Positions 1 to 6,099 of a stretch of DNA of 6,099 bases are shown piece after piece. The number at the start of each line of letters is the position of its first letter. The first letter of the stretch is position 1. The stretch is from NCBI GenBank assembly GCA_027063545.1, contig JAMORN010000161.1:1-6099 (forward strand). The letters run 5' to 3'. The translations under genes and the position numbers were made by a program. The notes under the pieces are model-generated. The model did no database searches. It saw nothing but the letters and a program-made list of their open reading frames with translations, and was not told the origin of the DNA. This DNA is from JAMORN01 sp027063545 [NCBI: bacterium]. Its GTDB lineage: Bacteria; JAMORN01.

Positions 1-965
1 TTTCTACTAAAATATATTAAGGAATTATCTAAAAAAACAAAAAATAAATGGGATGATGCAATTTTTGAAACAAAATTTTTAGATTACTCCATTTCTCTTT
101 TCCCATTAGCAGTTTTGTATCAATATTCAAGTGTGTTAGGAGATTATCAAAGATTTTTTCAAAAATCTATTCTTATTGTTTCAACCTTTATACTTTATTT
201 AATTATTAGTAATTTTTTAGATGCTTTATTAAAAATTTATTCTCAATATCCTATTTCTAAGAAAAAACCAATAAAAGGATATATTCAAATAATAAAAATA
301 TTCTTATTTGTAATAATTAGTATAGTTACAATATCTATTCTTTTTAATACATCTCCTTGGAAATTTTTAAGTGGAATAGGAGCACTCACTGCTGTGGTTA
401 TGTTAATATTCAAAGATACTATATTATCATTTATTGCTAGTCTTCAACTTTCATCTCTTGATCTTATGCATGAAGGTGATTGGATTGAAATACCAAAATT
501 TGGAGTTGATGGAGAAGAATAAAAAGATCTATTTATATAGATTTAAATACAGCAAGATTTCTCACAGGTCGAGATATAGAAAAACTAAAAAGAGTAAAAC
601 TTATCAGAGAATATATTGAAAAAAAATTAAAGGAAATAGAAGAGTATAATAAAAATTTAGATACAGAAGTTACAATAAATGGAAGAAGACTTACAAATAT
701 TGGAACATTTAGAAAATATGCAGAATTTTATTTAAGAAACAACCCTAATATAAGAACAGATTTAACTCTTATGGTAAGGCAACTTCAACACACAGATAAA
801 GGTCTTCCATTAGAGGTATATTGTTTTACCAAAACAACTAAATGGACAGAATATGAAGAAATTGCTGCAGATATTTTTGATCATTTATTTGTTGTTGCTA
901 GAGAGTTTGGCTTAAAGATATTTCAACTTTCTAATGTAGGTACAAATAGGGTTATAGATGAATAA
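1..965 (+). pseudogene. ybdG: YbdG-type mechanosensitive ion channel gene, 5'-truncated by the window and broken by an internal deletion
   Basis: Seen: the frame is open from base 1 to a TAA at 520-522 (173 residues), then coding continues in another frame from about 513 to a TAA at 963-965 (150 residues) with no further stop. The first part has hydrophobic segments at about residues 54-73 and 95-116, a pore-type helix at 123-150 (SGIGALTAVVMLIFKD) and GDWIEIPKFGVDG. The second part begins RRIKRSIYIDLN and contains NGRRLTNIGTFRKY, LMVRQLQ, GLPLEVYCFT and ADIFDHL. Known: these match, in order, the E. coli YbdG/MscM-type MscS subfamily, inner-membrane channels that open under membrane tension. 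From my memory of that family, about 43 codons between GxDG and GGRRIKRS are absent; they form most of the cytoplasmic beta domain. Inference: a recent inactivating deletion, since both flanks are otherwise well preserved. The N-terminus lies outside the window. TTG at 115 is not the start, because the frame runs upstream of it. Confidence 0.85.
511..518 (+). other. Deletion junction in the channel gene
   Basis: At GGAGAAGA the codons of the upstream part (GTT GAT GGA, residues VDG) meet those of the downstream part (AGA AGA ATA AAA AGA, residues RRIKR). Homologues have GxDG before the missing segment and GGRRIKR after it, so both sides probably carried GGA or GGAGA-like purine sequence. That would suit a deletion between short direct repeats. 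The downstream frame is offset by one base, so the deletion length must be 3n+1. A single-base indel cannot explain the loss of about 43 codons. The exact breakpoint is ambiguous because of the shared bases. Confidence 0.65.
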
Positions 966-1129: not shown

Positions 1130-1603
1130 ATGCAACAAGTAACAAAAAACAAAGTAGTAACATTTAACTACACTTTAAAAACAAAAGATTCTGAAGAGGT
1201 TGTTGATTCTTCAGAAATGCACGGTCAACCATTAAAGGCTATTTTTGGAATCGGACTTTTAATACCCGGTCTTGAAGCTAGAATGGAGGGTATGACAGTT
1301 GGTGAAAGAAAAATTATAGAAGTTCCAGCCAATGAGGCTTATGGAGAAAGAAAATTAGAACTTATAAGAAAAGAACCAAAAGAATACTTTCAAGGAATTG
1401 AACTTCAAAAAGGAATGACTCTTCAAGGCCAAACTCAAACTGGAGAGATTATAAATTTAATAGTTGTTGATTTTGATGATGAGACCGTAACCGTTGATTT
1501 TAACCATCCTTTAGCAGGAAAAGATTTAGTTTTTGATGTTGAAATTTTAGAGATTAGAGATGCAAGCCCTGAAGAACTAACCCATGGCCATGTTCATAAT
1601 TAA
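1130..1603 (+). CDS. slyD: SlyD-type FKBP peptidyl-prolyl cis-trans isomerase and chaperone
   Basis: Cytoplasmic prolyl isomerase with holdase chaperone activity, 157 residues. Seen: an N-terminal FKBP strand (residues 8-18), the GIGLLIPGLEARMEGM block (40-55), ANEAYG (67-72), then an inserted domain (about 73-124) and return to the FKBP fold at NHPLAGKDLVFDVEILEIR (125-143). Known: this insert-in-flap arrangement, with AYG before and NHxLAG after the insert, defines SlyD; the insert binds unfolded chains. The protein ends in EELTHGHVHN, so it keeps only the start of the His-rich segment and lacks the long Cys/His tail of E. coli SlyD that binds nickel for hydrogenase maturation. Nickel storage is therefore unlikely, although H152, H154 and H156 could still bind one metal ion. 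No signal peptide is visible. It is apparently transcribed alone, between a broken channel gene and a convergent ATPase gene. Confidence 0.95.
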   Translation: MQQVTKNKVVTFNYTLKTKDSEEVVDSSEMHGQPLKAIFGIGLLIPGLEARMEGMTVGERKIIEVPANEAYGERKLELIRKEPKEYFQGIELQKGMTLQGQTQTGEIINLIVVDFDDETVTVDFNHPLAGKDLVFDVEILEIRDASPEELTHGHVHN

Positions 1604-1630
1604 TTCATAATTAAAAAACTAATTTATTCA

Positions 1631-1683
1631 AAGAGGGATTTAAGTCTATTTAGCTTTAAATCTATTTAGGCTTTTTCCCTCTT
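1631..1683. terminator. Long imperfect hairpin between convergent genes, probable bidirectional terminator
   Basis: AAGAGGGA (1631-1638) pairs perfectly with TCCCTCTT (1676-1683). After a small internal loop, AAGTCTA (1642-1648) pairs with TTTAGGCTT bases 1667-1673, including one G-U pair on the plus-strand RNA. A weak TTTA/TAAA closure (1649-1652/1657-1660) may cap it. The hairpin begins 27 bases after the slyD stop and its right arm overlaps the last bases of the opposing ATPase gene. Neither side has a strong U-run directly after the stem, so the terminator call is inferred from position and pairing. Confidence 0.55.
1639..1670. repeat. Two-copy tandem direct repeat of 16 bases
   Basis: TTTAAGTCTATTTAGC (1639-1654) is followed directly by TTTAAATCTATTTAGG (1655-1670), with 14 of 16 bases identical. 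The pair makes up nearly all of the sequence between the GC-richer arms of the convergent hairpin. It may have arisen by local duplication that lengthened the hairpin. Confidence 0.7.
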
Positions 1684-3103
1684 ATATTAAAAGAAAATAT
1701 ATAAGAGGTAAAATTAAGACATTATCTTTCTTTTCTATTTTATTACCCTTAGAATTTAAAAGAATACCATAACGAAATTCTTTACTTCTTAATTGACTTA
1801 AAGTTTTTTTGCTACTTCCAATCTCAATTGCTATTGGTTTGGAATTTGTTCTTACAATAAAATCAGGTGTTTTTTTCTCTTTATCTTTTGTATAAAATGT
1901 TAAATCTCCCACATTCTTTTTTAAGTATAAAGCAACTATATCCTCATATAACTTAGGATGAAACTTTTCTTTATTATTTTCAAAAACTTTTCTTATTATT
2001 GCATACCTTATTGTTGGAGAGATAAAAAATAATTTTTCATATTGATTTATTCTATTTTTTACTCCACTATAAAAAGGAAATTTAACTAAAATCTCAGAAT
2101 TTATTAAAATATCAATAATTCTATTTATTTTTTTCAGTTTTATACCTAGAAAATTTGATATTTTTTCCTGGTTGAAATCATCTGTAAATGGAATATAGTA
2201 AAGAATTTTATTAACTTCATCTTTATCTTCAATGTTATAAAAATCAACAATATCTTCATTTACTATCCTCTTTAACATTTCTAAGATACTATCTAATATA
2301 CTCTTTTTTTCGTCATTTAATAAAATTCTTGGTATATTATGATAAAAAACGTATTGCTCTAGTATATTCTTAAAGAATGAACTTTTTTGTTTAATAGTTG
2401 TTAAATAACTTGATATATCTGGTTCTATTTTTTTTAATCTATCATAAAGTTCTAAAGTGGTATCTGAATAAAAGATAATCTCTTTTAACTTTTCAGAAAG
2501 CCCTTTTTTAGGAAAAATATACTCTCCTTTTTTATAAAAATTTCTTATTAACACAAACTCAGGAAACGATAAGGGATACAAACTCTGAAGTGTCCATCTT
2601 GATGCTAAATCAACATTGTAATTTAATGAAAGTGAAGAAGAACCACTTACAATAATGAATATATCTTTATATTTATCATATAAAATTTTTACTATTAAAT
2701 CCCAATTTTTTAAATATTGAGCCTCATCTAAAAATAATACTACTCTATTTTTTCCTTTTATTTTATCAAAAGATTCTATTAATATTGAAGAAGTAAGATT
2801 ATAGTTATAAGCAATATCTAAACTTAAATAGTATATATCTATGTTTTTATCGTTATTATAAATATAGTCAATAAGCTGCCACATAAGCAGAGTTTTACCA
2901 ACACCTCTTATTCCTGTTATTCCAATTATTCTCGGTTCCACTAAGGTTTGTTTTATAAAATTATTTATATAAGATTTTAATTTTACAAATAAAAATCTTT
3001 TAGGATATTTTAAGTTAATATACGGATGATAAACTTTATCTTTTATTTCTTTATAATCTACCTTAGCGTTTTTAAAAAAATTAACTCCAACATCTATATT
3101 CAT
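1682..3103 (-). CDS. AAA-type ATPase with DUF4143-like C-terminal domain
   Basis: Predicted cytoplasmic ATPase of 473 residues. Seen: Walker A GIRGVGKT (64-71), Walker B VVLFLDEAQ (121-129), a sensor-1-like IIVSGSSSL (150-158), R169, then YPLSFPEF (176-183). A Lys/Ile-rich middle includes a probable winged-helix stretch (about 310-345), and the C-terminal segment has TPDFIV (412-417) and IAIEIG (424-429). Known: this order is typical of AAA_14/DUF4143 or archaeal-type ATPase_2 proteins, whose tail has a restriction-endonuclease-like fold; their cellular role is not established. In the PD-(D/E)xK-like core, P413, D414 and E427 are present but the expected Lys of ExK is Gly429, with S430, S431, K432 and K433 just after, so nuclease activity is doubtful. 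The ATG follows the alaC stop by 8 bases, with GGAAGG before it, which implies co-expression. No membrane segment is evident. Confidence 0.85.
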   Translation of the reverse strand: MNIDVGVNFFKNAKVDYKEIKDKVYHPYINLKYPKRFLFVKLKSYINNFIKQTLVEPRIIGITGIRGVGKTLLMWQLIDYIYNNDKNIDIYYLSLDIAYNYNLTSSILIESFDKIKGKNRVVLFLDEAQYLKNWDLIVKILYDKYKDIFIIVSGSSSLSLNYNVDLASRWTLQSLYPLSFPEFVLIRNFYKKGEYIFPKKGLSEKLKEIIFYSDTTLELYDRLKKIEPDISSYLTTIKQKSSFFKNILEQYVFYHNIPRILLNDEKKSILDSILEMLKRIVNEDIVDFYNIEDKDEVNKILYYIPFTDDFNQEKISNFLGIKLKKINRIIDILINSEILVKFPFYSGVKNRINQYEKLFFISPTIRYAIIRKVFENNKEKFHPKLYEDIVALYLKKNVGDLTFYTKDKEKKTPDFIVRTNSKPIAIEIGSSKKTLSQLRSKEFRYGILLNSKGNKIEKKDNVLILPLIYFLLI

Positions 3104-4383: not shown

Positions 4384-5106
4384 TTATATAATTTTCTTAA
4401 TAATTGATTTATCTTCTACAAAAAGAAGATCAATAATAGACATATATGGAAGAAAATCTTTATTTGTTTTAAAAGTAATTTGATTATAAACAGGGTGTGA
4501 ATAGTCATGCCATTTTACTTTTATACCTTCCCTTAAAAATTTTTCTTCTTCTAAATAATCTTTGGCGCTTTTTCCTGAGATATATTCATCTACTTTTATA
4601 TTAAACCTTCTCTCTAAATTTTCAATCACTTTCAACAGTCTATCTGTTTTTTTAAACTTCTTTTCTATTTTAAACTCACTTGCCAGAATAAAATTTGTAT
4701 CTTCTTCTAACCCTATATATTTTGCTAAATCTAATATTAAATTAATATCCAAATCAACAAGAAATTTATAACCTCTATTAATATGATATTCTATTATATC
4801 AAAAACCTCCTTAAAATAAGGGGTTGTTTTATATGAAAATTTTATACTTTTTAAATGTTTTTTTTGCCAATTTTGAATATATGAAATCTTTACTTCATTT
4901 ATCTTATACTCAAAATAAGGTTTTTCAAGGCTAACAGGAACTGATAACCAAATCCAACCATTTGGAGTCTTAATCCTATTTCTTGTTCTCCAATCCCGGA
5001 TTGTAAATTGAACATCATCATAAAAAACAAAAAAATCTGCCTGTTTTATTAAATTAAAGTAGCCTATCCATGGCAAATAAGAAGGCTGAAGAATTACTAT
5101 TTTCAT
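4384..5106 (-). CDS. WbqC-family protein, probable surface-glycan biosynthesis gene
   Basis: 240 residues, about full length for the WbqC-like family. Seen: the N-terminal signature ILQPSYLPWIGYFNLI (5-20), then DFFVFYDDVQF (24-34), WRTRNRIK (39-46) and WLSVPV (53-58). A central SGKSAKDYL (177-185) and the C-terminal YSHPVYNQI (202-210) and FLPYMSIIDLLF (218-229) complete the family pattern. Conserved polar residues such as Q7, D24, D30, D31, R42, N43, K182, D183 and H204 are candidate active-site groups. Known: WbqC-like proteins are often encoded in O-antigen and other polysaccharide or glycolipid clusters; I know of no firmly established reaction for this branch. No signal peptide or membrane helix, so probably cytoplasmic. 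Its ATG overlaps the TGA of the upstream methyltransferase as ATGA, with only a weak GGA-containing ribosome site, so translation is probably coupled. Confidence 0.88.
   Translation of the reverse strand: MKIVILQPSYLPWIGYFNLIKQADFFVFYDDVQFTIRDWRTRNRIKTPNGWIWLSVPVSLEKPYFEYKINEVKISYIQNWQKKHLKSIKFSYKTTPYFKEVFDIIEYHINRGYKFLVDLDINLILDLAKYIGLEEDTNFILASEFKIEKKFKKTDRLLKVIENLERRFNIKVDEYISGKSAKDYLEEEKFLREGIKVKWHDYSHPVYNQITFKTNKDFLPYMSIIDLLFVEDKSIIKKII
5103..5106 (-). other. ATGA stop-start overlap coupling methyltransferase to the WbqC gene
   Basis: On the minus strand the ATG of the WbqC gene (5106-5104) overlaps the TGA of the methyltransferase gene (5105-5103). The sequence before it, ACGGAAA, is a poor ribosome site. 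Terminating ribosomes therefore probably restart here, keeping the two proteins in proportion. Confidence 0.85.
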
Positions 5107-5759
5107 TTTCCGTTATTTTCTCTATTCACTTTATATGTGAGTTCCCACAGTGGATAAGAGGTTATAATAGTTATATCTCTAGATAGTCCTTTATATAAAA
5201 AATCAAAAAATTCCTGAAAATCAGGATAAAAAAGATGGGATTCTTTATAATTAACTGAGGGAGAAAGTGTATTAAATATTATTCCAAATTCAGATATCCT
5301 ATACATTTTTATAATTACTTCTTTTATATATTCATAAAAATCCTTAGTCTCAAGATCAGATTTTACATTAAATATTCCACTTGCTATTACAACATCAAAG
5401 GATCTTTTTTCAAAAGAAAGTTCTAAAAACTCTCCTATAAATAAATTTTCTTTTATATTTGGAAATCTCTCTTGAGCTTTTTTTATCATATTAGCCACTA
5501 AATCAACTCCATAATATTCAAATACTTTAGTAGATACTTTTGTTGAAATAAAATCATAAAATGCTCCGTATCCACATCCTACATCTAAAATTTTTATTTT
5601 TGGTTTTTTATATAAATAATTCTCTAAAAACTTATAAATATACTCAAATCTCATGTATTGACTATATAAATCTGCCCAATCCACTCCTTTGGGAGTATCC
5701 TTATATTGAGAAAATTTTTTAAAGTAATACTCTTTTATAACATTTGGTATCCTTCTCAT
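5103..5759 (-). CDS. Class I SAM-dependent methyltransferase in the glycan operon
   Basis: 218 residues, a single Rossmann-fold methyltransferase domain, predicted cytoplasmic. Seen: motif I ILDVGCGYGAF (57-67) for binding SAM, the acidic end of strand 2 at YGVD (83-86), a post-motif FDVVIASGIFN (121-131), and a C-terminal part with FNTLSPSVN (162-170), YPDFQEFFDFL (178-188) and SYPLWELTYKV (201-211). Known: motif I followed by an acidic residue about 20 residues later is diagnostic of class I SAM methyltransferases. The SGIFNV and late YPLWE-type segments resemble stand-alone methyltransferases found in polysaccharide clusters, by my recollection. The substrate cannot be read from sequence; a sugar or glycan intermediate is inferred from the neighbours. 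It starts one base after the radical SAM gene's stop and overlaps the WbqC start by four bases. The AAAAGG upstream is only a weak ribosome site, so coupling is likely. Confidence 0.87.
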   Translation of the reverse strand: MRRIPNVIKEYYFKKFSQYKDTPKGVDWADLYSQYMRFEYIYKFLENYLYKKPKIKILDVGCGYGAFYDFISTKVSTKVFEYYGVDLVANMIKKAQERFPNIKENLFIGEFLELSFEKRSFDVVIASGIFNVKSDLETKDFYEYIKEVIIKMYRISEFGIIFNTLSPSVNYKESHLFYPDFQEFFDFLYKGLSRDITIITSYPLWELTYKVNRENNGK

Positions 5760-5760
5760 A

Positions 5761-6099
5761 TTATTTTACCTTTTCTTTTATTATATAATCAGCCCTTAAT
5801 GCCTGCCAATCTCTACAATCCCTACATACAGGAGGAAGTTTCTCCCATTCTTTGTTTTTATGATATTCTCTATATATCTTTAGCTTAGAATTCTTCCAAA
5901 CATCCTTTATTGAAGATTCTGATACATCTCCAACTATAACTTTACCATCCCAATCCATTGGACATATTGGAACCTTTCCATCATGAAATATTGTTATTAA
6001 TTTCATAATATAGTAACATGGAAATCTATGTTTATTATCATAAATTAGATGCTTTGCCTCTACAGTATTTGCCCAAGAAGCTTTAGGCCTTATTTTAAT
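5761..6099 (-). CDS. Radical SAM protein, C-terminal SPASM-type domain (5' part outside the window)
   Basis: Only the last 112 residues are present; the frame is open to the window edge, so the Met at 6006 is internal. Seen, numbering the fragment from the edge: FPC (C28), PICPMDWDGKVIVGDV with C46, SIKDVW (63-68), and PPVCRDCRDW with C92 and C95. Known: a Cys, then CPxDWxG...GD/N, an aromatic-containing SIxDVW and a CxxC pair is the C-terminal pattern of SPASM/Twitch-type radical SAM enzymes, where these cysteines hold an extra iron-sulfur cluster. The radical SAM core with CxxxCxxC should lie upstream. This cysteine pattern is common in radical SAM proteins encoded in polysaccharide and cofactor clusters. 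The reaction cannot be assigned here. The TAA stop is one base before the methyltransferase ATG, so it is the visible first gene of a tightly packed operon that begins outside the window. Confidence 0.87.
   Translation of the reverse strand: MKIRPKASWANTVEAKHLIYDNKHRFPCYYIMKLITIFHDGKVPICPMDWDGKVIVGDVSESSIKDVWKNSKLKIYREYHKNKEWEKLPPVCRDCRDWQALRADYIIKEKVK

What the first reader, a model, noticed from the sequence alone, without database searches (positions are those of the whole stretch)
480..560. In-gene deletion removes the beta domain of a YbdG-type mechanosensitive channel
The upstream part ends in GDWIEIPKFGVDG and coding resumes one frame over at RRIKRSIYIDLN. In relatives I remember, these are separated by about 43 residues of the Sm-like beta domain. 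The rest of both halves is intact, which points to a recent loss, probably between short GGAGA-like repeats. The organism may be losing an osmotic or miniconductance channel, or the locus may vary between cells in a population. A shorter product of pore helices alone is also conceivable.
Basis: partly seen in the sequence, partly recalled or inferred. Interest (0 to 1): 0.6.

Follow-up and report, generated by a model that had tools for sequence, protein, structure and literature searches.

The report
Broken YbdG-type mechanosensitive channel gene
A gene for an ordinary pressure-sensing membrane channel has lost a 130-base piece, which breaks it in two; this is probably a recent loss of the gene, or else a flaw in the draft genome, and it points to no new biology.

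Summary
Positions 1-965 hold a YbdG-type MscS channel gene whose 5' end is cut off by the contig edge. The first part reads in frame 1 to GVDG (ending at 513), then meets TAA at 520-522. The second part (RRIKRSIYIDLN...) starts at 513 in another frame. In 52 of 52 full-length homologues aligned, exactly 43 residues separate these points, so 43x3+1 = 130 nt are missing. Most of the beta domain is gone; its first strand (GDWIEIP) remains. The missing part was not found elsewhere in the 83%-complete genome. The second part has no ATG/GTG/TTG before 771, and reading through TAA adds five residues. Best reading: a null allele made by one short deletion, recent because the rest is little decayed. 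An assembly or chimera artefact cannot be excluded: no reads, no sister genome, and the break lies 513 nt from a contig end. Against a generally error-ridden assembly, a strict scan of 61 readable contigs gave 75 coding junctions, 2 without a nearby start: this one and one whose gene proved complete. Another, intact MscS-type gene is present. Ordinary; low interest.

The parts
1..522 (+). Upstream half of a YbdG-type MscS channel gene (5' end beyond the contig edge): membrane helices, pore helix, first beta strand, ending GVDGEE-stop
   Evidence: 30-48% identity to the homologues it matches, 42% over 110 residues to E. coli YbdG; no Pfam match of its own
513..513 (.). Deletion junction; 130 nt missing relative to the homologues aligned
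   Evidence: 43 residues between these points in 52 of 52 homologues; also in L014 and E. coli YbdG
513..965 (+). Downstream half: C-terminal alpha/beta domain, in the frame offset by -1, no ATG/GTG/TTG before 771
   Evidence: Pfam PF21082 E 3e-8; 53% identity over 139 residues to E. coli YbdG

Best explanation
It is a null allele of an ordinary YbdG-type mechanosensitive channel gene. One deletion of 130 nt, probably by slippage or end-joining at a very short overlap, removed most of the beta domain and shifted the frame. Translation stops two residues after GVDG, leaving membrane helices without a cytoplasmic cage, and the C-terminal domain is not translated, apart from perhaps a 64-residue piece from the ATG at 771. 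Shown: missing segment, frame change, stop, lack of a usual start codon. Inferred: that it happened in the organism, that it was one event and recent, and that the product is inactive.
For: 52 of 52 homologues aligned have the segment in one frame. The segment was not found elsewhere in the held genome, and no second copy of the region: besides the window itself, one search gave only three matches of 41 to 53 bases. Readthrough of the TAA adds five residues (KDLFI) before the next stop. The other half has no ATG/GTG/TTG before 771. The remaining halves have no second stop or frame change and keep 16 of 17 and 28 of 31 highly conserved sites. In 61 readable contigs (421,060 nt; 19 further fetched contigs read all N), the strict scan found 75 coding junctions, of which 2 lack a nearby start: this one and L139, where the downstream valyl-tRNA synthetase frame has complete domains and a start just past my 60-nt cutoff. 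So the sampled part of the assembly is not full of frame errors.
Against: There are no reads and no sister genome: this is the only genome of its phylum held. The join is 513 nt from a contig end in a 355-contig draft, where false joins are likely. A looser scan gave 4 of 130 junctions without a start and the loosest, on the first 40 contigs fetched, 8 of 67; by inspection most are nested or very short frames, but one besides this (L104:1803-2620) stays unresolved. Conserved sites are kept slightly below the homologue means, and the terminal branch is the fourth longest of 53.
Confidence: 0.62

Rival explanations
1. Assembly or amplification artefact: the organism has an intact gene, and a chimeric read or a wrong join near a contig end dropped 130 nt.
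For: Draft of 355 contigs, 82.7% complete; the join lies 513 nt from a contig end; any overlap at the join is very short, as in chimeras (recalled); the rest of the gene is little decayed.
Against: Judged from the residues conserved in homologues at the two edges, the edges cannot share a repeat long enough to collapse an assembly graph (inference; the lost letters are unseen). In the strict scan of 61 readable contigs no other junction is a convincing break, and those contigs hold no exact inverted repeats of 25 nt within 3 kb, which amplification chimeras might leave.
Confidence: 0.33
2. A functional variant: a shorter channel made by -1 frameshifting across the join, or a pore-only product from the first half.
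For: A shift of -1 just before the stop would join the halves in frame; a small hairpin lies at 525-544.
Against: No X XXY YYZ heptamer just before the stop (read from the sequence); the hairpin is not unusual (z -1.33, 22 of 200 shuffles as good); 0 of 52 homologues aligned lack the segment; the miniature MscS of Trypanosoma cruzi keeps the beta domain and drops the alpha/beta domain, the reverse of what is left here (passages of PMC12334622).
Confidence: 0.03
3. The population holds both alleles (intact and deleted) and the assembly kept the deleted one.
For: Little-decayed remainder; nothing else speaks for it.
Against: No alternative-allele contig in the held assembly; no tandem tract at the join. 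Repeats that lie partly in the lost stretch cannot be seen.
Confidence: 0.02

Closest known systems
E. coli YbdG (b0577), miniconductance mechanosensitive channel of the MscS superfamily
   Same: 53% identity over 139 residues in the C half and 42% over 110 residues in the N half, collinear
   Different: YbdG residues 218-260 have no counterpart in the window and the reading frame is broken there
TcMscS of Trypanosoma cruzi (miniature MscS)
   Same: A reduced MscS-type channel
   Different: It keeps the beta domain and lacks the alpha/beta domain (passages of PMC12334622); the window still holds the alpha/beta domain sequence and lacks most of the beta domain

Membership tests
YbdG-type MscS channel (as sequence family) | Collinear similarity of both halves to YbdG-type proteins | tested here: met
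YbdG-type MscS channel (as sequence family) | MS_channel_3rd domain (PF21082) | tested here: met
   E 3e-8, 34.4 bits against a cut-off of 21
YbdG-type MscS channel (working) | Beta domain (PF00924) present | tested here: not met
   no match in the window; 43 residues missing; homologue L016 and E. coli YbdG match it
YbdG-type MscS channel (working) | One open frame from start to end | tested here: not met
   the 5' end lies beyond the contig and could not be tested
YbdG-type MscS channel (working) | Tension-gated current | not testable with these tools
   needs patch clamp

The most novel reading that the evidence does not exclude
A natural MscS-type protein that joins the pore helices straight to the C-terminal domain by frameshifting, without most of the beta domain, and still does something in the membrane.
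Probability: 0.02. Interest if true: 0.6.

Novelty: already known. Interest (0 to 1): 0.12.

Why it matters
If real, it is one gene loss in a lineage of which no relative is held here, and which keeps at least one other MscS-type channel; it bears only on how that organism copes with osmotic change. As a case it shows how a short deletion can be sized exactly from homologues, and why reads are needed before calling a loss from a draft genome.

Tried and rejected
Looked for the missing segment elsewhere in the genome with a full homologue: only the two halves in the window matched at E up to 10. Looked for another copy of the region in the own genome: only three matches of 41-53 bases besides itself. 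A DNA search of 58 other genomes gave matches in 8, all from distant kin ('same domain'); most are short stretches, and one (108 nt at 69%, L014) is a true YbdG-type homologue that has the 43 residues. Exact DNA of the left flank in viral contigs: 0 matches. Phase variation: no tandem tract at the join and no direct repeat of 12 nt or more touching it in 1-1100, though repeats inside the lost stretch cannot be seen. Stop-codon readthrough: next stop five residues on. Programmed frameshift: no heptamer, unremarkable hairpin. Loss of every such channel: rejected, C302 has an intact MscS-type gene; no MscL was found, but the genome is incomplete and 4 of 14 control genomes gave no MscL either. 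The tree gave the window the fourth-longest terminal branch and the 11th root-to-tip distance of 53; with no close relative this cannot separate faster decay from isolation. The first script for frame breaks scored no ORF as coding because its background model was poor; it was replaced (the last also drops nested frames). One search (strict, first 40 contigs) gave 25 junctions, 1 without a start: the window's. Solved structures: homologue L016 matched YnaI, MscS and MscM chains; the first half alone gave one weak match, E 0.46. No structure was predicted. Papers: mechanosensitive channel + pseudogene + MscS + frameshift listed one paper, not opened; the listings were seen, and of them PMC12334622 and PMC4440785 as passages only.

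Full report
What is there. The window is one whole contig (C161, 6099 nt) of a draft genome of 1,573,478 bases in 355 contigs, 82.7% complete. It is the only genome of its phylum held, so no sister strain could be compared. Base 1 lies inside a gene that reads in frame 1 to ...GDWIEIPKFGVDGEE and stops at TAA 520-522. From 513, offset by one base, another frame reads RRIKRSIYIDLN... to the stop that ends at 965.

One gene in two pieces. A scan of the species-genome collection with the second half gave 54 loci (a pattern-based search, so not every homologue that exists). In 52 of the 54 both halves match one continuous frame. The other two are L046, which has an in-frame TAG, and L066, where only part of the C half matches. 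In the alignment of the 52 (51 distinct sequences) the Gly at the end of the first half and the Arg at the start of the second are present in all, and exactly 43 residues lie between them in all 52. In the window the two codons overlap by one base, so 130 nt are missing. E. coli YbdG matches both halves collinearly, 42% over 110 residues and 53% over 139, with G217 and R261 at the two edges.

What is lost. Pfam places the beta-domain family (PF00924) at 183-250 of homologue L016, of which 215-250 fall in the lost part, 215-257. The pore helix and first beta strand remain on one side and the C-terminal domain on the other (PF21082, E 3e-8). The window itself has no PF00924 match.

Could a product still be made? 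After TAA the first frame has five codons before the next stop. The second frame has no ATG, GTG or TTG before 771, so at most 64 residues could start there with a usual codon. A -1 shift would join the halves, but no X XXY YYZ heptamer lies just before the stop, and the hairpin at 525-544 is unremarkable (z -1.33). The smallest MscS-type channel that I met in the papers listed, from Trypanosoma cruzi, keeps the beta domain and lacks the alpha/beta domain (passages of PMC12334622), the reverse of this case.

Real or artefact? For a real, recent deletion: the remaining halves show no second stop or frame change and keep 16 of 17 and 28 of 31 highly conserved sites. That is 94% and 90%, slightly under the homologue means of 96% and 95%, with 10 and 8 of 52 homologues lower. 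To see whether the assembly is full of such breaks I fetched 80 contigs, 61 of them readable (421,060 nt). The strict scan found 75 coding junctions, 2 without a nearby start: this one and L139, where the downstream frame is a valyl-tRNA synthetase with complete domains and a start about 64 nt after the upstream stop, just beyond the 60-nt cutoff. At a looser score, 4 of 130 lacked a start, the extra two being short or weak frames by inspection. The loosest scan, of the first 40 fetched contigs, gave 8 of 67. Three of these are short frames inside longer ones, three have partners of under 30 codons, one is the window, and one (L104:1803-2620, no Pfam match) remains open. Against: no reads, and the join lies 513 nt from the contig end. 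I give 0.62 to a real null allele and 0.33 to an artefact; these are judgements, not computed.

How it arose. The join GATGGAGAAGAATAAAAAG is purine-rich. No overlap can be strictly shown, because the lost letters are unknown. If the lost stretch began with Asp or Glu, as in 28 of 52 homologues, three to five bases would be common to both edges. This fits slippage or end-joining at a short overlap, and fits a chimeric read as well.

Consequence. The genome keeps another, intact MscS-type gene with all three Pfam MscS domains on contig C302. MscL was not found. Loss of the YbdG-type gene would therefore not leave the cell without any mechanosensitive channel.

Verdict. It is an ordinary broken gene or a draft flaw, with no sign of a new system.

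Noticed in passing
L046:3986-3988: A second broken YbdG-type gene: a Clostridiales metagenome-assembled genome has an in-frame TAG five codons before the RRIKR motif, with the rest in the same frame; a real nonsense change or an error.
   Followed up: partly
L104:1803-2620: Two coding-like frames in G000 contig C178 that may be another frame break; no Pfam family matches either.
   Followed up: partly
   Followed up: no
window 1130-1603: FKBP-type peptidyl-prolyl isomerase gene (PF00254) directly downstream, one open frame; SlyD-like by recall.
   Followed up: no
window 4384-6099: WbqC-like protein, methyltransferase and SPASM-domain protein genes in a row on the minus strand, perhaps a surface-sugar or modification cluster (the last words are a guess).
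   Followed up: no
window 1682-3103: AAA_14 ATPase gene of 473 residues, without a match in NCBIfam.
   Followed up: no
window 1593-1614 and 1639-1674: Two short tandem repeats at the end of and just after the FKBP gene.
   Followed up: no
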